DNA from: Limisphaerales bacterium | GTDB lineage: Bacteria > Verrucomicrobiota > Verrucomicrobiia > Limisphaerales > AAA164-E04 | Length of the DNA stretch: 64,000 nt | Reading direction: 5' to 3' | Assembly (NCBI GenBank): GCA_024761205.1 | Contig: JAMASS010000019.1 | Span: forward strand, 1 to 64,000 | Shown: positions 7,021 through 37,165 of the stretch, one piece after another | Position numbering within the stretch: the stretch's first letter is position 1 | Layout of the letters: each line of letters opens with the position of its first letter | The notes under the pieces: generated by a model | What the model saw: the letters and a program-made list of their open reading frames with translations, nothing else | What the model was told of the DNA's origin: nothing | Databases searched by the model: none | Position numbers and translations under genes: made by a program

Positions 7021-10000
7021 ATGATCCGCTGGTTTGCAAATAACGATATCGCCGCGAATTTCCTCATGGCGGGGATATTGTTGACGGGCGTTTACACGGC
7101 TTTTTTTCGGATTCCTTTGGAGGTGAGTCCTCAGAGAACTTTCGACGGGATTTATTTCTCCATGGCCTATCGCGGCGGAACTGCGAAGGATGTTGAGCGG
7201 GCTATTTTGATCCCTGTGGAGGAAGCGTTGGAGGGCTTGAACGGGGTGAAGATGATCAATGCCGACGGCTATCGGGGACGCGCTCGGATTTGGATTGAGG
7301 CGGAACCGGGCTACGATTTGAGAATTCTGCTAGAGGATATTCAAAGCCGGGTCGACGGCATCACCACATTCCCCAACGAGACAGAAAGACCGGAGATCCG
7401 GATTCCTGATTCCACTCATTTTTACGATGTGTTGTCAGTGGCTGTAACGGGTCGTTTGGGTTCTCATGAGTTGCGAGGGGTGGCGCGGCGGGTTCAGGAA
7501 GATCTGTTGGAAATTGACGGGATCAGCTTGGTGGATCTATCTGGAACGCGAAACTATGAGATTGCCATCGAGGCCGATCCTGAGCGCTTGCAATCTTATA
7601 ACATCGGGTTGGGAGAGTTGGCGAATGCGGTGCGCCGATCGTCAATCGATCTTCCGGCGGGATCGATCCAAAGTCAAAGTGGCAATCTCGTTGTGCGAAC
7701 CCGCGGGCAAGCCTACTCACGGGAGGAGTTTGAGCGGATCCCCCTTCGTGCCAGCAATGGTGCGGAAGTCCGGCTCGGTGAAGTGGCGACTGTGATCGAC
7801 GGATTCGAGGAGGGCGACAAGGTTGTTGAGTTCAATGGCAAGCCGGCCCTCTTTGTTGAGATCATGCGGACCGGAAATGAGAGCGCGATTGATGTTTCTA
7901 ACAAGGTGACGGAATACGTGCGAACATCGGCTAGTCGGTTTCCGGACGGGATCGAATTATTCATCTTTGATGATGAATCGATCTCGATCCGCGGTCGGTT
8001 GAACGCCCTGACCTCATCCCTGCTGCAAGGAAGCCTCTTGGTGTTTCTGGTCCTCGGCCTCTTTCTTCGACCGCAGCTCGCGTTTTGGGTGGTGGTGGGG
8101 ATTCCTGTTTGCTTTGCCGGCGGTGTCATGTTGATGCCGACCTTTGGGGTCACCGCCAATGTGATGAGTATCTTTGGATTCATCATCGTGGTCGGGGTGG
8201 TCGTCGATGATGCCATCGTTACCGGCGAAAATATTTACTCAAAGATGCGGCAAGGGATGGATCCTTTGGAGGCGTCCATTACTGGCGCTCGCGAGGTGGC
8301 CGTGCCGGTGACGTTTGGCGTGCTCACAACGGTGGTCGCGTTCCTGCCATTGATGTTTTTCGAAGGGCGCTGGGGAAGTTTTGCCAAACAGATTCCACCG
8401 GTGGTTGGTCCGGTGCTGCTGTTTTCGCTGGTCGAATCAAAGCTGATTTTGCCCGCACATTTGAAGCACCTCAAAACGGGCGTTGTGGGGCGGAATCCGT
8501 TCCTGCGGATTCAACAACGATTGGCCGACGGATTGGAGCGTTTTGTGGAGAGGATCTACCAACCGCTCTTGGAGTACTCTGTGCGTCACCGGGGCGTTGT
8601 GATGGCAGTCTTCGCCGCCTCGGCTCTCGCGATGGCGGGTTACTGTCAAGGGGGGCGCTTGGGATTCCAATCGTTGCCATCGGTGGATCGCTTGAAGGTG
8701 TCGGCGTATCTCGGTTTGCCGAATGATGCGACGATCGAGAACACTCACCGTTGCGTGGACCGCATTGTTACCGCAGCCGAGAAGCTGAGGGGTGAGTTTG
8801 TGGATCAGGGAACGGGTAAGTCGCTGATCAAAAGCATTTTGACGGTCAGTGGAGCTCGGCATATCAGCAGCTCCTATAACAAGTCGCGTGCTTACGTTGC
8901 GGTGGAGGTGGTGCCGCCGAGTGTGCGGTCGGAGCCCGGGCCACGGAACAGTGTGATTGCCAACCGATGGACGGAGTTAGTCGGGCCGATTCCCGAGGCG
9001 ACGTATTTTCGAATTCGGGGAGAGGAGTCTCGGGGGAGGGATGAAGATCGCGAGACTGAGGCGCTGGAGTTGGAACTGCGAGGCCCATCATCGGAAATCA
9101 AGAATGCGATCGCCGAGCGGATTGCCGACGAGTTGAAGGCTTTTGAGGGAATCAATAATGCTCAAGCAGAGGTGAATCACGGCCAGGACGAATTGGAGTT
9201 TACCTTAAAGCCACGCGCTGCGGAACTGGGTCTCACCCAGCAGATGCTGGCGCAGCAGATTCGGCGGGCGTTTTTCGGAGAGGAGGCGCAGCGCTTGATG
9301 CGAGGCGTAGATGATATTCGCGTCATGGTTCGGTTGCCGCAGCAGGAGCGGGAGTCTTTGCATACCATTGATCGCCTTAAGATACGTACTCCAGATGGTG
9401 GTAGTGAGGTGCCGTTGGCGACTGTGGCCGATTTAACCTTTGTCCAGGCCCCTTCATCGATCGAGCGGAACGCAGGCGCGGAAATCATTCGGATTGGGGC
9501 ACAGCCAGTCGACGAAAATGTCGACATTATTGGTATCGCTCGCGAAATCACGCCGCGCTTGCAGGAAATATGCAACGAGGGAGAAGACCTGTCCTTTGTC
9601 TTCACTGGCTATGTTGCAGAAGCGGCGGAATCACGCAAGCGGACGATTGTTGGCTCCATTGCGCTGTTCTTCGCCTTGTTTGCGTTGTTGGCTATTCCCT
9701 TTAAATCTATGATCCAGCCGTTCTATGTCCTGATCGCGGTGCCGTTTGGCGTGATTGGGGCGCTGCTGGGCCATGTTGTGATGGGCATCACGCCGTCCTA
9801 CCTTTCAGTTTTTGGCATGTTGGCATTGGCTGGAGTGGTCGTGAATGACTCGCTAGTGCTGATGGATTTTGTGAATCGCCAGGTGCGTGAGGGTATGCCA
9901 TTGCGCGAGGCGGTATTGATTGCCGGTGGACGCCGTTTTCGTCCGATCTTGCTCACATCCGTGACCACCTTCGTGGGATTGATCCCGCTGCTTATGGATC

Positions 10001-30379: not shown

Positions 30380-31015
30380 TCATAATGCTTCAGGCGGTTG
30401 CTTCTGCGACGGCGGGCGGAAGGTGCGGGCGTCGATGCGCTGCGGGATGTTCTCCGTGGCCAGCTCGAATCCCGGGTCTCCACAAAGATAGTTATCAATC
30501 TCTATTATGCAGTCGTCGTTGCGCAAGCCCTTGTCCGAAACGCCCTCCCATACATAAAGGCCATCACCGCCGACAGGCCAGTAGATGATCGGCCAGTAAC
30601 CTAACGATGTTATATCGGGATCGCCTCCAGCCAGGTTCACTCGCTCTTCGAATTCCACCCAGGTCTCAGTGAGATACCAGTAAATCATGGCATCACTACG
30701 ATGTTTGTTGTGACTTATTTCAGAGAAGGGATCCCGGTCCGGGGTCATGTCGTTGCGCCGTCCGTCTATCACGGCGTTGAGGGCGTTGAACGCCGGGCAC
30801 GCCCAGAGTTCGGCATCCAAATGAAAAACCCCGAAACCGATGACTTTCTCGTCTTTCGAGTAGATCGTCCCAACCATTAAATGACTCTTAAGGACATATA
30901 CTCGCTCCCGATAGTAGAACTCGTATTTGTCCGGGGGATACGGAACAGAAGCCGCCTTCATCCGCCGGGAGGACGGGTCGTAAAAGGTTGCCAAAACCGA
31001 GTATTCATCCGCCAT
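30380..31015 (-). CDS. Hypothetical protein of unknown function
   Basis: 211 residues from ATG at 31015 (MADEYSVLATFYDPSSRRMK). The ATG is preceded by a GGAG-type ribosome-binding site (AAAGGAGAGACG). The longer upstream frame is rejected because it reads through the preceding ORF. No membrane segments. The protein is rich in aromatic and charged residues (KYEFYYRERVYVLKSHL, DAMIYWYLTETWVEFEERV). I recognise no family. It follows the methyltransferase and a 39-residue ORF with tight spacing, which implies one operon. Confidence 0.65.
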   Translation of the reverse strand: MADEYSVLATFYDPSSRRMKAASVPYPPDKYEFYYRERVYVLKSHLMVGTIYSKDEKVIGFGVFHLDAELWACPAFNALNAVIDGRRNDMTPDRDPFSEISHNKHRSDAMIYWYLTETWVEFEERVNLAGGDPDITSLGYWPIIYWPVGGDGLYVWEGVSDKGLRNDDCIIEIDNYLCGDPGFELATENIPQRIDARTFRPPSQKQPPEAL

Positions 31016-31029
31016 CGTCTCTCCTTTGC

Positions 31030-31149
31030 TTACGGCGAGAGGGCTTCCCAGACGTAGCCCCAGACGGGGAAGTGCACCCCCGTCAATTTGGCGCAGGCCC
31101 AGGCCAGGGTCTGCGCCCCGAACTCCTGATTGATTCGAACGGCGTTCAT
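31030..31149 (-). CDS. Possible 39-residue small protein
   Basis: ATG at 31149 starts 6 nt after the methyltransferase stop codon, and the frame ends 14 nt before the next gene, with a ribosome-binding site between. The product starts MNAVRINQEFGAQTLAWAC and ends VWEALSP. Dense packing of three genes on the same strand supports reality, but no homologue is known to me. Confidence 0.4.
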   Translation of the reverse strand: MNAVRINQEFGAQTLAWACAKLTGVHFPVWGYVWEALSP

Positions 31150-31155
31150 GAAGTT

Positions 31156-31857
31156 TCAGGCGGGGCGCGACAAACGAGCGGGAACGCCCCGCACATCCTT
31201 GACCGCCAAAAGATTGAACGCATGGCGGCAACGCACATCCGCCCGCAACCCCCACGCCAAAGCCGCGTCTAACACCGCCACGCCCGAAAAACGCCACCGA
31301 AACTCACCGGCGTAACCATGTAAATACTTCAGCCCCGTCGTGCCGAACACCTCGTAGCCCAACCCCATGAAATCATGCGCAAACCAGCCCGACAAATGCC
31401 GCTGATGTTCATTGCCAAATTCCGGACCCTGCGGCACAAAACCATTCAGCGTTTCCAGCAACACGAACCGCCGCGTAATCGCCTCGCATTGTTCCAGCAA
31501 CGCGAACCCCTGCCGCTTGGGCAAATGTTCAATCACCCCATACAACGTCACCAAATCAAACGGCTCCCCGCCCAACCGCGCCACAATCTCAGCCGGTTCG
31601 ACGGCCAGCACATCCGCCGCCAGATACGCATCATGCAGCCCCCGCGCCTTCGCCCGCGCCACCGCCGCTTCGCACACATCCACTCCCGCCGTCCAAACTC
31701 CCGGTCGGAACCCGCTCAAATGAGACCATTCCCCACAACCGACATCCAGAGCGCGGGCGACCTCCCCGCTCGCAATCAGCCGCGCGGTATGCTCCCGCGC
31801 TGCGGGCAAACCAAACACCCGCTTCAACCAGTGGCGCATCCCAAAGCGTTCTTTCAT
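31156..31857 (-). CDS. Class I SAM-dependent methyltransferase
   Basis: 233 residues from ATG at 31857 (MKERFGMRHWLKRVFGLPAA); an earlier ATG at 31899 is less likely. Motif I ALDVGCGEWSHLSGF, motif II-like WTAGVDVCEAAVARAKARG, and FDLVTLYGVIEHLPKR (post-I/motif IV) define the Rossmann methyltransferase fold. Residues near QRHLSGWFAHDFMGLGYEVF suggest a small-molecule or sugar methylase, but substrate cannot be told. It begins the downstream half of the minus-strand block. Confidence 0.8.
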   Translation of the reverse strand: MKERFGMRHWLKRVFGLPAAREHTARLIASGEVARALDVGCGEWSHLSGFRPGVWTAGVDVCEAAVARAKARGLHDAYLAADVLAVEPAEIVARLGGEPFDLVTLYGVIEHLPKRQGFALLEQCEAITRRFVLLETLNGFVPQGPEFGNEHQRHLSGWFAHDFMGLGYEVFGTTGLKYLHGYAGEFRWRFSGVAVLDAALAWGLRADVRCRHAFNLLAVKDVRGVPARLSRPA

Positions 31858-31954: not shown

Positions 31955-32260
31955 TCAGCGGAGTGTATCGAGTCTGAGTCCAAAGATCACGAGACATAAA
32001 CCAATCCAAAGATAAACCAGGATTCTTTGCCATCGGCTCCCCGACCAAACGACAACAGGGAAAAGCATTGCCAGGGTGATTGCGAAAAAAGCGGCAAATG
32101 CGTAGTTCTCGACGGCATCGAAGTTTTTATACACTAGGGGAAGTATTTATATCCATAGCACCATGATGGGCAGAGACACTGCATACGCCATAACAAGCCG
32201 CCAATTGGCGGTGCGGAATGGTCTGCTGAAACATTGCTTTTTCCAAGGTTGTTTGCTCAT
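31955..32260 (-). pseudogene. Small membrane protein of array, type A copy 3, with nonsense codon
   Basis: From ATG at 32260 the product starts MSKQPWKKQCFSRPFRTANW and reaches the first membrane segment, then a TAA at 32147-32149. Reading past it continues ILPLVYKNFDAVENYAFAAF and a second membrane segment (LFPVVVWSGSRWQRILVYL) to a stop at 31955. The PVVVW-xxxRWQ motif matches the other array members. One point stop makes it a recent pseudogene. It is the last member of the A-B-A-B-A array. Confidence 0.65.
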
Positions 32261-32281: not shown

Positions 32282-32335
32282 TTATTGTTTAGTTCTCCGG
32301 AGGTTCTTACACCCACAAATCTGCCAGCTTTTCAT
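32282..32335 (-). CDS. Mini-ORF 4 of array (17 residues)
   Basis: Product MKSWQICGCKNLRRTKQ, beginning about 20 bp after the poly-T of terminator R4 and ending about 22 bp before the next membrane-protein start. It shares the pattern M-x-S-aromatic-x-I-x-G-C-x-x-L-R-R with three other mini-ORFs and with the protease C-terminus. Translation is unproven. Confidence 0.4.
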   Translation of the reverse strand: MKSWQICGCKNLRRTKQ

Positions 32336-32351
32336 CCCGTCGGCAACAAAC

Positions 32352-32392
32352 AAAAAACCCGCCCCGTCCGCCAAAGGCAGAGCGAGGCGGGC
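32352..32392 (-). terminator. Rho-independent terminator R4
   Basis: On the minus strand a GC-rich stem-loop precedes TTTTTTG just after the type-B copy 2 gene. The stem differs in detail from the other copies but retains pairing. Confidence 0.6.
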
Positions 32393-32418
32393 GCAGCGGA
32401 AAAGGCGGTTGCTGCAGG

Positions 32419-32760
32419 TTATTGGGCGAGGTTCAATAAACCACGGACACTCACCCCGACAAGAAACAACAGGAACGCCACTCCCAACAGGGCCGGAACC
32501 CTTTGCCGCCAACTGCCCCACACCGCCACCGGAAGCAACATCAACGCACCTGAGAGCCACAGAAACATAAAGACCAAATCAAAGCATACCCTTACAAGTT
32601 CCATTGCGTTACCCATCAGTACGCCATAGATCATGCTAAGGGGCGGAACAACTATAAAGACAGCAGCAAATATAACAGTGCCCATAACGATCGTCAGTCC
32701 GCCCTTCAGCCGCTTGGTCAAAGCGGACTCATCCGGTATGAAGTAGCTTTTCAAGTTCAT
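32419..32760 (-). CDS. Small membrane protein of array, type B copy 2
   Basis: 113 residues (MNLKSYFIPDESALTKRLKG). Two or three hydrophobic helices; the LLPVAVWGSWRQRVPALLGV motif is shared with the other type B protein (33422-33757). No signal peptide, no known domain. The SYFIPDESALTKR start parallels HYFIPKQSALTKR of type B copy 1. Confidence 0.7.
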   Translation of the reverse strand: MNLKSYFIPDESALTKRLKGGLTIVMGTVIFAAVFIVVPPLSMIYGVLMGNAMELVRVCFDLVFMFLWLSGALMLLPVAVWGSWRQRVPALLGVAFLLFLVGVSVRGLLNLAQ

Positions 32761-32777
32761 GCTCGCACATCTTTTCG

Positions 32778-32843
32778 TCAGCGTCGTTCGTTGCGCCCGT
32801 CTCTCGTCAAATCTTCACAGCCGTAAATGTTAAAGCTATCCAT
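32778..32843 (-). CDS. Mini-ORF 3 of array (21 residues)
   Basis: Product MDSFNIYGCEDLTRDGRNER plus one Arg. It is located between terminator R3 and the type B copy 2 gene. It resembles the end of the secreted protease, where MDTWQIYGCEDLRRNGP occurs. Confidence 0.4.
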   Translation of the reverse strand: MDSFNIYGCEDLTRDGRNERR

Positions 32844-32859
32844 CCCGTCGGCAACAAAC

Positions 32860-32898
32860 AAAAAACCCGCTCCGTCCGCCAAAGGCGGGCGAAGCGGG
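32860..32898 (-). terminator. Rho-independent terminator R3
   Basis: Minus-strand stem formed by CGCCCGCC-TTT-GGCGGACGG flanked by CCCGCTT/AGCGGG, followed by TTTTTTG. The repeat unit 32819-32927 is nearly identical to R1. Confidence 0.7.
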
Positions 32899-32920
32899 CG
32901 CAGGGGAAAAGGCGGTTGGA

Positions 32921-33232
32921 TTAAATAGGTCCGAAGAAATACTCGATAATCATCACCAACAGCACCCCAAGGGGCAGGGCGGACAGCAACCAAGCCACAA
33001 CTTTTTGCCAAAGTTTTCCCCACACCATGACGGGAAGCATGACCATCGGAATGGTGAAAAACAAAACATCTAATATCACATCATAAAAGTCTCTCGGGCT
33101 GAGAGCGGGATTAGAAGCAAGTAATAGATAGCTTAGTAGCACCCAAGAGAAGCGCCATATCGGACGATTGAAGCGTCTCCCGATAAAACCAGCCTTGTCC
33201 AAGATTTTCACAGTTCTCTTCACCTCCTGCAT
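32921..33232 (-). CDS. Small membrane protein of array, type A copy 2
   Basis: 103 residues. A basic N-terminus (VKRTVKILDKAGFIGRRF), a first membrane segment (SWVLLSYLLLASNP), and a second pair of hydrophobic stretches ending VMVWGKLWQKVVAWLLSALP. The last stretch is almost identical to type A copy 1 (PVMVWGKLWQKVVAWLLSSL), so the duplication is recent in that part. Function unknown. Confidence 0.7.
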   Translation of the reverse strand: MQEVKRTVKILDKAGFIGRRFNRPIWRFSWVLLSYLLLASNPALSPRDFYDVILDVLFFTIPMVMLPVMVWGKLWQKVVAWLLSALPLGVLLVMIIEYFFGPI

Positions 33233-33251
33233 CAGTTGCCTCCGCTTTCGG

Positions 33252-33305
33252 TTATGGGCCGTTTCTTCTCAAGTCCTCGCAGCCGTAAATCTTAAAGCTA
33301 TCCAT
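33252..33305 (-). CDS. Mini-ORF 2 of array (17 residues)
   Basis: Product MDSFKIYGCEDLRRNGP, the same last 9 residues as the protease C-terminus. The DNA GGGCCGTTTCTTCTCAAGTC onward is identical over about 37 bp to the protease 3' end. Confidence 0.45.
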   Translation of the reverse strand: MDSFKIYGCEDLRRNGP

Positions 33306-33321
33306 CCCGTCGGCAACAAAC

Positions 33322-33362
33322 AAAAAACCCGCCCCGGAAATTCCGAGGCGGGCGAAGCGGGC
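33322..33362 (-). terminator. Rho-independent terminator R2
   Basis: Minus-strand stem with a different inner loop (CGGAATTTCCGG) from R1 and R3 but still paired (CCGCC/GGCGG), followed by TTTTTTG. The retained pairing despite sequence change supports a hairpin function. Confidence 0.6.
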
Positions 33363-33421
33363 GCAGAGGAAAAGGCGGTTGCCGCAAGGCAAGCCGTCAG
33401 CCGATGCCGCCTGACGCCCCG

Positions 33422-33757
33422 CTAACCTGCGGCACGGTCCAATAAATTAAGGACGACCATCAATAAAACAAACAACAAGAATCCCGCTCCTAGCAGTCCC
33501 GGAATCCTTTGCTTCCACCAGCTACTGCCCCACACAGCCAACGGAAGCAATATGACAGAGAGTGAGATCAACAAAACCGTAATGAAAAACCCGGCCAATG
33601 CCTCTACACGTTCCATTCCGGTAGTAGCAGGAACACATAATAGATAAAGAAGAATAGTTATGTAAGTGGCCACAAAGAGCCACTTGGCCACCTTCATCCG
33701 CTTGGTCAAAGCGGACTGCTTCGGTATGAAGTAGTGTCTGATTTTGTCTTTGTCCAT
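33422..33757 (-). CDS. Small membrane protein of array, type B copy 1
   Basis: 111 residues, starting MDKDKIRHYFIPKQSALTKR. Hydrophobic segments around WLFVATYITILLYLL and LLISLSVILLPLAVWG, then WWKQRIPGLLGAGFLLFVLL. The SALTKR element after an HYFIPKQ-type start is shared with type B copy 2. Function unknown. It lies between two terminator repeats. Confidence 0.75.
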   Translation of the reverse strand: MDKDKIRHYFIPKQSALTKRMKVAKWLFVATYITILLYLLCVPATTGMERVEALAGFFITVLLISLSVILLPLAVWGSSWWKQRIPGLLGAGFLLFVLLMVVLNLLDRAAG

Positions 33758-33781
33758 TTTCTCCGGTCCTTTCTCTCAGGG

Positions 33782-33835
33782 TCAGGGATCGGTCCGTCTC
33801 AGATCCCGGCAACCGTAAATGTTAAAGCTATCCAT
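33782..33835 (-). CDS. Mini-ORF 1 of array (17 residues)
   Basis: Product MDSFNIYGCRDLRRTDP. The stop codon lies about 24 bp upstream of the type B copy 1 start, which has a GGAGAAA ribosome-binding site. The pattern is the same as the other mini-ORFs. Confidence 0.4.
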   Translation of the reverse strand: MDSFNIYGCRDLRRTDP

Positions 33836-33851
33836 CCCGTCGGCAACAAAC

Positions 33852-33889
33852 AAAAACCCGCCCCGTCCGCCAAAGGCGGGCGAAGCGGG
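33852..33889 (-). terminator. Rho-independent terminator R1
   Basis: Minus-strand stem formed by CCCGCTTCGCCCGCC-TTT-GGCGGACGGGGCGGG, followed by TTTTTG. The repeat unit 33807-33916 shares over 90 bp with R3. Confidence 0.7.
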
Positions 33890-33911
33890 CGCAGGGGAAA
33901 AGGCGGTTGGA

Positions 33912-34232
33912 TTAAATAGTTCCGAAGAACAGTTTGAAATACGCGATAAGCATCACCAACATTACCCCAAATGACAGGGAGGACAGCAACCAAGCCACAA
34001 CTTTCTGCCAAAGTTTTCCCCACACCATGACGGGAAGTAAAAAAAGGGGAATAGCAAAAAAAACAACTGCCTCAACTATCCTTCGAAAAGATAGCCAAAG
34101 AGTGGGATGGTGATCCATTCCATCATCGGAAAAAAATACCGTGTAGAGATAAATTATCAGCGCGATTGCTATTCGCCAGCCTGTGCTTCTGAATTGCCTG
34201 CCACAGAAGTAATTTTTACAATCCGGTTTCAT
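33912..34232 (-). CDS. Small membrane protein of array, type A copy 1
   Basis: 106 residues: MKPDCKNYFCGRQFRSTGWR, then IAIALIIYLYTVFFS as the first membrane segment and VEAVVFFAIPLFLLPVMVWG plus LWQKVVAWLLSSLSFGVMLV as the second and third. It is the first gene after the protease, starting 24 bp beyond its stop with a GGAGG-type ribosome-binding site (AAGAGGAGGAAAGAAACC). Function unknown. Confidence 0.75.
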   Translation of the reverse strand: MKPDCKNYFCGRQFRSTGWRIAIALIIYLYTVFFSDDGMDHHPTLWLSFRRIVEAVVFFAIPLFLLPVMVWGKLWQKVVAWLLSSLSFGVMLVMLIAYFKLFFGTI

Positions 34233-34256: not shown

Positions 34257-37165
34257 CTAAGGGCCGTTTCTTCTCAAGTCCTCGCAGCCGTAAATCTGCC
34301 AAGTGTCCATTTCCGTGAACCCATGCTCCAATGCCTTCTCGGCGAACAAGCGCATACACTCATTCAGAGGTTTATTTTGCATCCAGTTGGAAAAGAGAAC
34401 AGCCAAAGCCTCAGCCATTTCATTATGTTGGCGTCCCGCATAAACAATATTATTTAGATGAGCCCCTTGAGGCACCTTAATTTCACCATGCCAGAGAACG
34501 ATGGCGCGGGGTTTGCGTCCCAAATCCAGATACTTCTGTACGGTGCTGGTCTCCGGGCTGATGCCGAAGACGTTGGGCCAAGTGCTGGTAACGGTTTCGC
34601 ACCCCATCAAAATCACCAAGCGATAGGGATGTTTGATCCGGATATCCGGGTCGGTCCTGAAATCCCACACGATCTTCGTCGAATTGCCGAGGGTTTCCGC
34701 TATTTCTTGAGTGTAAATCGCATCGTCCGGAGGATTATTGGGGTCATACGCTCCTCGTTTAGGTTCCCAAAACCACGGCGTCCGCGGCGCAATAAACTCG
34801 GCATGACCGTGGCCGAACCAAAAGAAGTTGCGGCTGTTTGGCAGGGCCAGGGTGTCGAGCAGGGTTCGTTTGTTGGCGCCGGTTCGAAATTGAAAGGTGG
34901 TTCCGACATCGTAGCCGTTGGGCGAGGGAAGCACCCGATACTCCCGGTTGTCCGGAAAAGCGGGGTTGGCGATGATGTTGATGATGCCGTTCTGAATCAT
35001 GCGGTGTTTGTGCTCAAATTCTTGCCGCCACAGGCCGCCCCATTTTATGGCTTCCGAATCCCATCCCCAAGCGACGACGAAGTCGTCTCCGTTCCAGGAT
35101 TCTTCCTTGGTGAAGGCCGTTTCTTGGACGGGGTTCCCGATATCCGGGCGATCTTCCGGTCCAGAAGCGGCGGCCACGGTCACGGCGCCGCCCAGAGCTG
35201 CCAGCGGTTGAACGAGGAAGAATTCGGCGCGGATGTTCTTGTCGTCGGGTAGGGGAGTGTCGGGGCCGATGTCCACCCGAATAGCAATGCGCGAGTTTTG
35301 CGGGCGCGTCGCCAGGGACGCGAGATAGGTGTCGTCTTCGTCGTAGAAGTCGATGAGGACATCAAAGGGGTCGGCGGGGTTGTAACCGTTCACGTCAGCG
35401 ATGATGTTGAGGTATTCGTCGAACTGACTGGCGAGAGGATCAAAGGTAAAACGGTTGTTGACGGTGATGGAGCGGGCTTCGCCCCGGACAAGGCGGTAAT
35501 CGCCGGGGATTCCCGGGTATTGGGTTTGGAGTTGCAAGGACCTGGAGCCGTTAGGGGTGTGGCGGGTGTTCCAGTGAAGTTTCCATTGATTGCCGTCTTT
35601 CTCGATGAAGGCGTCGCCGGTCACTTCGCCATCGACAACGAGGCTGAAGTCGGTGCCGGCGGGCACTTGGGATGAGATGTTGAGGTTGACGGTGAGGATG
35701 CCGGAGGCTTGCACCGGAAGGCCGGAAAGCCTCAGGGGGTGGGCATCGGCAACACCGGGCCGGGTGTGGAGTTTGAGTTCGGCGGCGTGGGGCAGGCCGT
35801 CATTGTCGTTGTCCGAGTAGGGATCGATTTCCTCGTCGGGCACGTCGGTGACGGTGACGCGGAAGAAGCAGATTGCGTCGCTGTGGTTGAAGCATTCCCT
35901 GATTCGTCCGGTGCTGGCGGCGGTGACGGTTTTCAGGGTCGTCCATTGCGGGGCGATTAGGGAGAGGGCCGCCTCAATCTTGTAGGTGCTGCCTTCCACT
36001 CCGTCCCAGAGGAGGCAGAGGTTGTTGGGCGGATTGTACTCGATGGCCAATCGGTCTCCCACGCTTTGCGCATTGGCTATGAATCGGGAAGCGAGAGGTT
36101 GGGCTTTCTCGAATAGTTGACTAGGTTCATCCACGCTTTGCTCTCTGGCTATGGGAGCGGGAGCGGGAGGCGTCGGTGGAGGGGTAGATGGCCGGCTGGG
36201 AATCTGGGTTGGGGTGGTGTCCGGGGTGAAGCCGTAGCGGAGGGTGTAACTGCCGGTGTCGATGGAACAATAGTGGCGAACCCCGGTCTCGAAGCGCTGT
36301 ATCGGTGGCGACTCTGTCTCCGTGCTTCCACTCCGCTCCAATGGCTCCGCAGGTCGTTTCTGGTAGCGCTGTCTCGATGGCGGGTAGTGTACGCTGTTAC
36401 GACTAGTGTCGATGGAACAATAGTGGTTCACTTTGACGTAGTAGGTGCCGGCGGTGACTTCGTGGGAAATGTTGAAGTTGCGGCCGGTGCCGCCGTCGTC
36501 GTTCCGGGTCAATTCGTTACCGTTGTTGTCATATAAGCGGCCGTAGGTGTCGGTCTCGTCGCCGGTGTATTCGGTGTAGGCCCAGATGGTGCCGGCGCAC
36601 TGCACGGTGAGGTAATAGTTTTCGGAATCGCCGCTGTAGCTAATGGAACCGCTGCGCATTAATGAGAGCTCTCTGCATTGCGCATTGGCGGCGGCGGGCG
36701 CGGGAGCGGGAGGCGCCGGTGGAGAGGTGGATGGCCGGCTGGGAATCTGGGTTGGGGTGGTGTCCGGGGTGAAGCCGTAGCGGAGGGTGTAACTGCCGGT
36801 GTCGATGGAACAATAGTGGTTCACTTTGACGTAGTAGGTGCCGGCGGTGACTTCGTGGGAAATGTTGAAGTTGCGGCCGGTGCCGCCGTCGTCGTTCCGG
36901 GTCAATTCGTTACCGTTGTCGTCGTATAAGCGGCCGTGCCGTAGGTGTCGGTCTCGTCGCCGGTGTATTCGGTGTAGGCCCAGATGGTGCCGGCACACTG
37001 CACGGTGAGGTAATAGTTGTCGGAATCGCCGCTGTTGCTGATGGAACCGCTGCGCATTAATGAGCGCTCTTTGCATTGCGCATTGGCGGCGGCGGGCGCG
37101 GCGATGAGGACCGCCGCAATAATGAAAAGTTTGGTGATTTGTTGTCTGAGGCTGAACGTTTTCAC
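34257..37165 (-). pseudogene. Secreted caspase-fold (clan CD-like) protease with PPC repeats, frameshifted near the 5' end
   Basis: The gene starts at 37165 with signal peptide MKTFSLRQQITKLFIIAAVL to the ANAQC cleavage region. Duplicated beta-sandwich units resembling PPC (bacterial pre-peptidase C-terminal) domains follow, each with NYYLTVQCAGTIWAYTEYTG and TAGTYYVKVNHYCSIDT. Then come Ig/Fn-like sections and a C-terminal caspase-like catalytic region with FFWFGHGH (candidate His) and RLVILMGCETV (candidate Cys). This His/Cys pattern fits clan CD proteases, of gingipain/CHAT type. A 5-bp tandem duplication (GCCGT x2, 36933-36942) frameshifts the first repeat; otherwise open for over 900 codons. 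About 950 residues if repaired. The C-terminus MDTWQIYGCEDLRRNGP resembles the mini-ORFs downstream. Confidence 0.8.
36277..36426 (-). repeat. 150-bp in-frame insertion in the protease repeat region
   Basis: The 21-bp segment GTGTCGATGGAACAATAGTGG occurs at 36256-36276 and 36406-36426, bracketing 129 bp of extra sequence. The insert translates in frame (SRQRYQKRPAEPLERSG, then STETESPPIQRFETGVR) and has an internal direct repeat, GCGCTGTMTCGRTGGCG, at about 36293 and 36367. The other repeat unit lacks it. Confidence 0.6.

What the first reader, a model, noticed from the sequence alone, without database searches (positions are those of the whole stretch)
32282..33916. Repeat units combining a terminator and a mini-ORF resembling the protease C-terminus
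After each of the first four membrane genes a near-identical unit of about 110 bp holds a GC-rich hairpin plus T-run, then a 17-21 codon ORF (MDSFNIYGCEDLxR type), then a ribosome site and the next membrane gene. The protease ends with MDTWQIYGCEDLRRNGP, and its DNA end is identical over about 37 bp to unit 2. The mini-ORFs keep ATG, stop and the I-x-G-C-x-x-L-R-R core although codons vary. They may be leader peptides, short genes, or copies of the protease 3' end that spread with the array.
Basis: seen in the sequence. Interest (0 to 1): 0.68.

Follow-up and report, generated by a model that had tools for sequence, protein, structure and literature searches.

The report
Toxin-tail scraps between immunity-like genes
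The repeated mini-genes are leftover ends of a secreted caspase-like toxin gene, each still attached to the small membrane (probably immunity) gene that follows it, and the shared ends have let these gene cassettes shuffle; this is a new example of known toxin/immunity gene arrays rather than a new kind of peptide gene.

Summary
On the minus strand, four membrane genes are each followed by a strong hairpin plus T-run and a 17-21 codon ORF, and the protease 3' end shares 37 identical bp with unit 2. The mini-ORFs are best explained as orphan 3' ends of the protease. Two more arrays in the same genome (contigs C24, C34) carry protease tails of about 130-142, 47-53 and 17 codons before the same family of membrane genes. 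Some tails are frameshifted or lack a start, and one junction has no mini-ORF. The mini-ORF ATG is an internal Met codon of the protease, without a Shine-Dalgarno. A second protein with the same N-terminus (95% identical) but a different C-terminus, and a third with a related N-terminus (53-74%), each have their own partner gene; in both arrays orphan tails precede extra partner copies. That is the layout of a polymorphic toxin with orphan toxin-end/immunity cassettes. A 476-bp exact copy of one cassette in another array begins and ends inside the tail, so the tails are where cassettes have been exchanged. The hairpins are good terminators. Leader peptide or short-gene function is not supported, though not fully excluded. 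Toxicity and immunity are inferred, not shown.

The parts
34257..37165 (-). Caspase-like effector gene (signal peptide, PPC repeats, C-terminal caspase/CHAT-like domain); 3' end encodes MDTWQIYGCEDLRRNGP. Signal peptide and first repeat (37165-36935) are in another frame than the rest, so this copy is frameshifted near 36940
   Evidence: frame change against the intact C34 paralogue; fold
34260..35135 (-). Caspase-like domain; invariant His codon 34811-34809 (FGHG) and Cys codon 34601-34599 (GCET)
   Evidence: A1 alignment, His109 and Cys179 invariant; AlphaFold pTM 0.79; Foldseek best hits SAVED-CHAT and caspase-11 with probability 1.00
33912..34232 (-). Membrane gene 1, probable immunity gene, 106 aa; start 24 nt after the effector stop
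33856..33890 (-). Terminator hairpin of unit 1, followed by T5
   Evidence: -27.5 kcal/mol, z -3.8
33782..33835 (-). Mini-ORF 1, MDSFNIYGCRDLRRTDP: orphan effector tail
33422..33757 (-). Membrane gene 2, 111 aa (93% aa identity to the C24 copy)
33327..33353 (-). Terminator hairpin of unit 2, followed by T6
   Evidence: -24.6 kcal/mol
33252..33305 (-). Mini-ORF 2, MDSFKIYGCEDLRRNGP: orphan effector tail; 37 bp identical to the effector 3' end
32921..33232 (-). Membrane gene 3, 103 aa, identical to the C24 copy
32866..32898 (-). Terminator hairpin of unit 3, followed by T6
   Evidence: -26.8 kcal/mol, z -5.1
32778..32843 (-). Mini-ORF 3, MDSFNIYGCEDLTRDGRNERR: orphan effector tail
32818..33293 (-). 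476-bp block identical to C24 (L009 6081-6556); both ends lie in tail cores (AAGATTTACGGCTG to AACATTTACGGCTG): exchanged cassette
   Evidence: flank comparison
32419..32760 (-). Membrane gene 4, 113 aa
32357..32392 (-). Terminator hairpin of unit 4, followed by T6
   Evidence: -29.9 kcal/mol, z -5.1
32282..32335 (-). Mini-ORF 4, MKSWQICGCKNLRRTKQ: orphan effector tail, more diverged
31955..32259 (-). Fifth membrane gene, a remnant with one in-frame stop
31033..31158 (-). Orphan tail of the second effector type (INQEFGAQ..), one stop inside
30380..31021 (-). Partner gene of the second effector type (FYDPSSRRMKAA.. family)

Best explanation
The mini-ORFs are the shortest members of a series of orphan 3' ends of a secreted, caspase-like effector gene. 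The locus is a polymorphic-toxin-like system: a shared N-terminus (signal peptide, PPC repeats), an exchangeable C-terminal toxin domain, and immediately downstream a cognate partner gene, here a small multi-helix membrane protein that is probably the immunity protein. When modules duplicate, or new ones displace the effector C-terminus, the partner gene stays behind with the last codons of its former toxin gene attached, because those codons lie 17-24 nt upstream of its start. Partner genes of one class also gained a terminator at their 3' end. The near-identical tails then served as homology blocks in which cassettes [3' half of tail, Shine-Dalgarno, membrane gene, terminator, 5' half of tail] were copied and shuffled between arrays. 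Shown from sequence: tails of several lengths, shared N-terminus with different C-termini, tail-to-tail cassette copying, terminators. Inferred: toxicity, immunity function, and RecA-type homologous recombination as the exchange mechanism.
For: Protease C-terminal fragments of about 142, 131, 47-53 and 17 codons precede membrane genes in C34 and C24. All 16 credible membrane-gene homologues of the genome lie in the three arrays. The C34 effector shares the window effector's N-terminus (95% over about 280 residues) but has another C-terminus with its own partner array and orphan tails. The C45 protein shares the repeat region at 53-74% identity, has a third C-terminus, and its second partner copy is preceded by an orphan tail of about 60 codons. 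The 476-bp exact match runs from tail core to tail core; upstream flanks are unrelated (4% identity) and downstream flanks belong to other modules. One C34 junction joins a membrane-gene end directly to the 3' half of a tail. The pairing of this caspase domain with a similar small membrane protein recurs in other Verrucomicrobiota (L025, L026), and orphan tail plus partner recurs in G837 and G501. Precedents: PMC5361080, PMC9484751, PMC3482391.
Against: No toxicity, secretion or immunity was tested. The window effector is frameshifted near its N-terminus. All seven hairpin-type mini-ORFs keep ATG and an open frame; a naive substitution model gives about 0.008 for that, and their pN/pS is 0.32. 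However, the longer tails, some of them frameshifted upstream, give 0.34, so the signal may be inherited from the time they were part of the toxin gene. The genome is a 92-contig draft, and a 476-bp exact repeat could be mis-joined, although both contexts would still exist. Toxin tails this short are not described in the papers read.
Confidence: 0.78

Rival explanations
1. Plain tandem duplication: a membrane gene duplicated together with a bit of upstream DNA that happened to be the end of the neighbouring protease gene, with no toxin/immunity biology. The tails are passive hitchhikers.
For: Alternating A/B membrane-gene types about 1 kb apart in the window indicate tandem duplication of a two-gene unit; C24 genes b and c are tandem copies (80% over 372 bp).
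Against: It does not explain tails of three discrete lengths, the same layout for unrelated C-termini, the same N-terminus on different C-termini, or cassette copying between contigs with both ends in the tail.
Confidence: 0.12
2. The mini-ORFs are translated leader peptides or regulatory short genes that control the next membrane gene, with the hairpin acting as an attenuator.
For: Seven of seven hairpin-type mini-ORFs keep ATG and stop; pN/pS 0.32. Strong terminator hairpins are present.
Against: The hairpin lies before the mini-ORF, the wrong order for attenuation by a leader peptide. No Shine-Dalgarno. No promoter-like site between hairpin and mini-ORF. The ATG is an internal toxin codon. 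C24_2 lacks a start, C24_3 is frameshifted, and one C34 junction has no mini-ORF although its membrane gene is intact.
Confidence: 0.05
3. The tail core is a site-specific recombination site of a cassette system resembling an integron, moved by a dedicated recombinase.
For: The exchanged cassette begins and ends in the same 11-bp core, ATTTACGGCTG.
Against: No tyrosine recombinase within 50 kb of an array; the core is ordinary coding sequence; no inverted repeat in the tail core by inspection; the tails of the other toxin types are unrelated in sequence. Homologous recombination suffices and has been described for immunity arrays (PMC9484751).
Confidence: 0.05

Closest known systems
Orphan effector/immunity arrays of the Vibrio cholerae T6SS (PMC5361080)
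   Same: One effector followed by an array of immunity genes; displaced effector 3' ends are pushed back with their immunity gene; modules exchanged by recombination
   Different: Here the effector has a signal peptide and PPC repeats, no T6SS link was looked for or found, the array genes are paralogues of one family, and the retained tails can be as short as 17 codons behind a terminator
Polymorphic toxin systems and polyimmunity loci (PMC3482391), including CDI and Rhs orphan modules
   Same: Common N-terminus with exchangeable C-terminal domains, partner gene immediately downstream, orphan C-terminal modules; caspase domains listed among toxin/processing peptidases; HEAT-repeat immunity proteins in Verrucomicrobia listed
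   Different: The C-terminal and partner families tested here have no Pfam match above cut-off; the delivery route is unknown
esaG and tsaI immunity-gene strings of the Staphylococcus aureus T7SS (PMC9484751)
   Same: Strings of non-identical immunity paralogues; membrane immunity protein (TsaI); recombination between homology blocks; a tspA toxin fragment between tsaI10 and tsaI11
   Different: Homology blocks there lie in the immunity gene and intergenic region; here the joint is the retained toxin tail
Caspase/CHAT (clan CD) peptidases
   Same: Predicted fold, FGHG and GC(E/N) catalytic motifs
   Different: Only about 8-10% identity to solved members; C-terminal domain of a large secreted protein

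Membership tests
Polymorphic toxin system | Shared N-terminal region with alternative C-terminal domains | tested here: met
   C11 and C34 share signal peptide and repeats at 95% identity with different C-termini; C45 shares the repeats at 53-74% and has a third C-terminus
Polymorphic toxin system | Partner gene immediately downstream whose family tracks the C-terminal type | tested here: met
   Small membrane protein with the caspase type (three arrays, plus L025 and L026), FYDP protein with type 2, 419-aa protein with type 3
Polymorphic toxin system | Orphan toxin-C-terminus/immunity modules downstream | tested here: met
   Tails of 17 to 142 codons before extra partner copies in C11, C24, C34 and C45
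Polymorphic toxin system | C-terminal domain is toxic and is neutralised by the partner | not testable with these tools
   Needs expression in a laboratory strain
Polymorphic toxin system | Recognised delivery machinery (T5SS, T6SS, T7SS, PVC and others) | tested here: inconclusive
   Signal-peptide-like N-terminus and weak PPC hits below the Pfam cut-off; no machinery searched genome-wide
Clan CD caspase-like peptidase | Caspase/haemoglobinase fold with His-Cys dyad | tested here: met
   His109 and Cys179 invariant; Foldseek probability 1.00 to SAVED-CHAT and caspase-11, TM-scores about 0.4
Intrinsic terminator | G+C-rich stem followed by a T-run | tested here: met
   All 8 hairpins fold, -21.6 to -29.9 kcal/mol, z -3.0 to -5.6, each followed by a T-run of about 5-6
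Leader-peptide attenuator | Translated leader ORF upstream of the terminator that controls the next gene | tested here: not met
   The ORF lies after the terminator, without a Shine-Dalgarno
Integron-like cassette array | Nearby integrase and attC-like sites | tested here: not met
   Nearest tyrosine recombinase about 55 kb away on C34, none elsewhere near an array; no inverted repeat in the tail core by inspection

The most novel reading that the evidence does not exclude
The 17-codon tails are kept by selection because they work: as a dedicated homology joint that keeps toxin tails and immunity cassettes exchangeable, or as short translated tails that bind the membrane partner or prime its translation. 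This would be a minimal cassette format [terminator, toxin tail, immunity gene] built into a family of secreted caspase-like toxins of Verrucomicrobiota.
Probability: 0.12. Interest if true: 0.65.

Novelty: new member of a known kind. Interest (0 to 1): 0.42.

Why it matters
It links a puzzling repeat to a known process, the build-up of orphan toxin-end/immunity cassettes. It points to an undescribed toxin/partner set in Verrucomicrobiota: a caspase-like domain with a small membrane partner, and two further C-terminal types with their own partners, none of the families tested having a Pfam match above cut-off. The 476-bp tail-to-tail copy captures a cassette exchange with both endpoints located to within a few bases. 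It also warns that conserved mini-ORFs next to toxin-like genes can be inherited gene ends, not small-protein genes.

Tried and rejected
Small-protein or leader reading: rejected on order, Shine-Dalgarno, tail series and broken tails. Integron-like site: no nearby recombinase. Genome-wide repeat element: the 166-bp unit matches only the three arrays. Pfam gave no family above cut-off for the caspase domain, membrane proteins, FYDP proteins or the 290-aa partner. A profile search of PDB sequences was inconclusive; the only clan CD hit was an RTX cysteine protease at E 0.31. Substitution ratios on the tails could not separate present selection from inherited constraint. Family-level genomes held no relative (0 of 10), so no close-species comparison was possible.

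Full report
What is there. All features lie on the minus strand. The effector gene (34257-37165) ends in MDTWQIYGCEDLRRNGP and is followed by four membrane genes of 103-113 aa and the remnant of a fifth. After each of the four there is a G+C-rich hairpin with a T-run and a mini-ORF of 17-21 codons. The exact 37-bp identity between the effector 3' end and unit 2 was confirmed. The 166-bp unit around the first hairpin matches only eight places in the 4.94-Mb genome, all in three arrays: C11 (this window), C24 and C34.

The mini-ORFs are the short end of a series. A search of the genome with the protease C-terminus found further fragments, each upstream of a membrane gene: about 142 codons in C34, 131 in C24, then 47-53 codons in both. 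Reading the arrays shows that nearly every membrane gene is preceded by a piece of the protease 3' end, of varying length and state of decay. C24_2 has no start codon, C24_3 is split over two frames, and C24_4 carries frame changes upstream of an intact end. At one C34 junction the preceding membrane gene runs directly into the 3' half of the tail, with no mini-ORF (ATTGCCGGGATTTAAGGCGGACCGACCC). The hairpin class holds the shortest pieces. Their ATG equals an internal Met of the protease (GFxGMDSW), and homology continues a few bases upstream of it. The G-run before the ATG touches it, and pairing with the anti-Shine-Dalgarno is weak (-2.6 kcal/mol for five of six hairpin-type starts scored at the right base, -5.5 for the sixth; the seventh, C24_6, was scored three bases off and is not used). 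Ten of 13 membrane genes score -4 to -12.

The tails are exchange points. The longest exact match between arrays is 476 bp, window 33293-32818 against L009 6081-6556. It starts at AAGATTTACGGCTG in one tail and stops at AACATTTACGGCTG in the next. Upstream of it the two arrays are unrelated (4% identity: hairpin class in C11, longer tail in C24). Downstream, C11 continues with membrane gene 4 and C24 with a membrane-gene-2 relative. So one cassette, made of the 3' half of a tail, a membrane gene, a terminator and the 5' half of the next tail, was copied. Unit 2 of the window and the C34 unit likewise share their upstream half (95% over 119 nt) but not their downstream half. No tyrosine recombinase lies within 50 kb of an array, so homologous recombination is the simplest mechanism; this is an inference.

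The system around it. The window effector and a 598-aa protein in C34 share signal peptide and repeats (95% over about 280 residues), but the C34 protein has a different C-terminus. It is followed by several FYDPPSRRMKAA-type genes, separated by orphan tails (INQEFGAQSVATACANL..) related to that C-terminus. A third protein in C45 shares the repeats at 53-74% identity, has a third C-terminus, and is followed by two copies of a 419-431-aa partner. The second copy is preceded by an orphan tail of about 60 codons. One layout with three C-terminal types is the signature of polymorphic toxins with orphan C-terminus/immunity modules (PMC3482391; PMC5361080). The caspase domain has invariant His and Cys, and its model (pLDDT 72.6, pTM 0.79) matches SAVED-CHAT and caspases. 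The membrane proteins share an LLPVxxWGxxxQ(K/R) motif, recognisable also next to the same effector type in other Verrucomicrobiota. Orphan tails upstream of a partner occur independently in G837 and G501. None of 10 family-level relatives holds the system, and 35 of 320 genomes of the order (this one included) hold some relative of the domain, which fits an accessory trait that moves between lineages.

The hairpins. All eight hairpins, counting C24 and C34, fold strongly although their inner sequences fall in two classes. CCCGCT..AGCGGG in unit 3 and CCCGCC..GGCGGG in unit 4 are one change kept on both sides (read); with so few sequences no formal covariation test was made. They are terminators of the membrane genes. 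Because they precede the mini-ORFs by about 15-20 nt, and no promoter-like site was found there, the mini-ORFs would be reached only by read-through.

Selection. The hairpin-type tails have pN/pS 0.32, the long tails 0.34, and column shuffles 0.83 and 0.95 on average, though only 40 and 34 shuffles were usable. A naive model gives about 0.008 for all seven hairpin-type frames staying open. Because most differences lie in the 3' halves that travel with the downstream module and were coding in a toxin before, and because broken tails show the same ratio, this is expected by descent. It cannot exclude some present constraint.

Limits. Toxicity, immunity and secretion are inferred from layout and fold. 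The window effector is frameshifted near 36940 relative to the C34 paralogue, so this copy may be inactive or the base call wrong. The genome is a 92-contig assembly, and exact repeats could be mis-joined, though the two contexts of the 476-bp block would remain. Transmembrane segments were only estimated from hydropathy.

Noticed in passing
window 36935-36945 (-): The effector's signal peptide and first PPC repeat are in a different frame from the remaining 900 codons, unlike the intact C34 paralogue: a frameshift or base-call error.
   Followed up: partly
L009 3050-3476 and L010 minus-strand 7279-7705: An exact 427-bp copy of the 5' part of a DUF58 gene lies at the left edge of the C24 array, fused to a type-2 toxin tail; the intact gene follows the C34 array. 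The order suggests a circularly permuted transfer between the arrays.
   Followed up: partly
L009 1407-1569 and 3009-3165: 157-163 bp direct repeats (terminator plus DUF58 upstream region, 95-98% identical) flank a 386-aa gene.
   Followed up: no
L098 and L009; window 30380-31158 (-): FYDPPSRRMKAA-type genes overlap the start of the following orphan tail at TCATGA, and tandem copies of about 911 bp are 94% identical in C34.
   Followed up: partly
L089 6510-7690: In G501 an orphan caspase tail lies directly behind a REP-associated (RAYT-like) transposase gene and before a broken partner gene.
   Followed up: no
L025, L026, L084-L088: In relatives the caspase-like effector is followed by a conserved 270-320-aa partner (AYKFVAVTLMLAxAN..) in addition to, or instead of, the small membrane protein; no Pfam match for the one tested.
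   Followed up: partly
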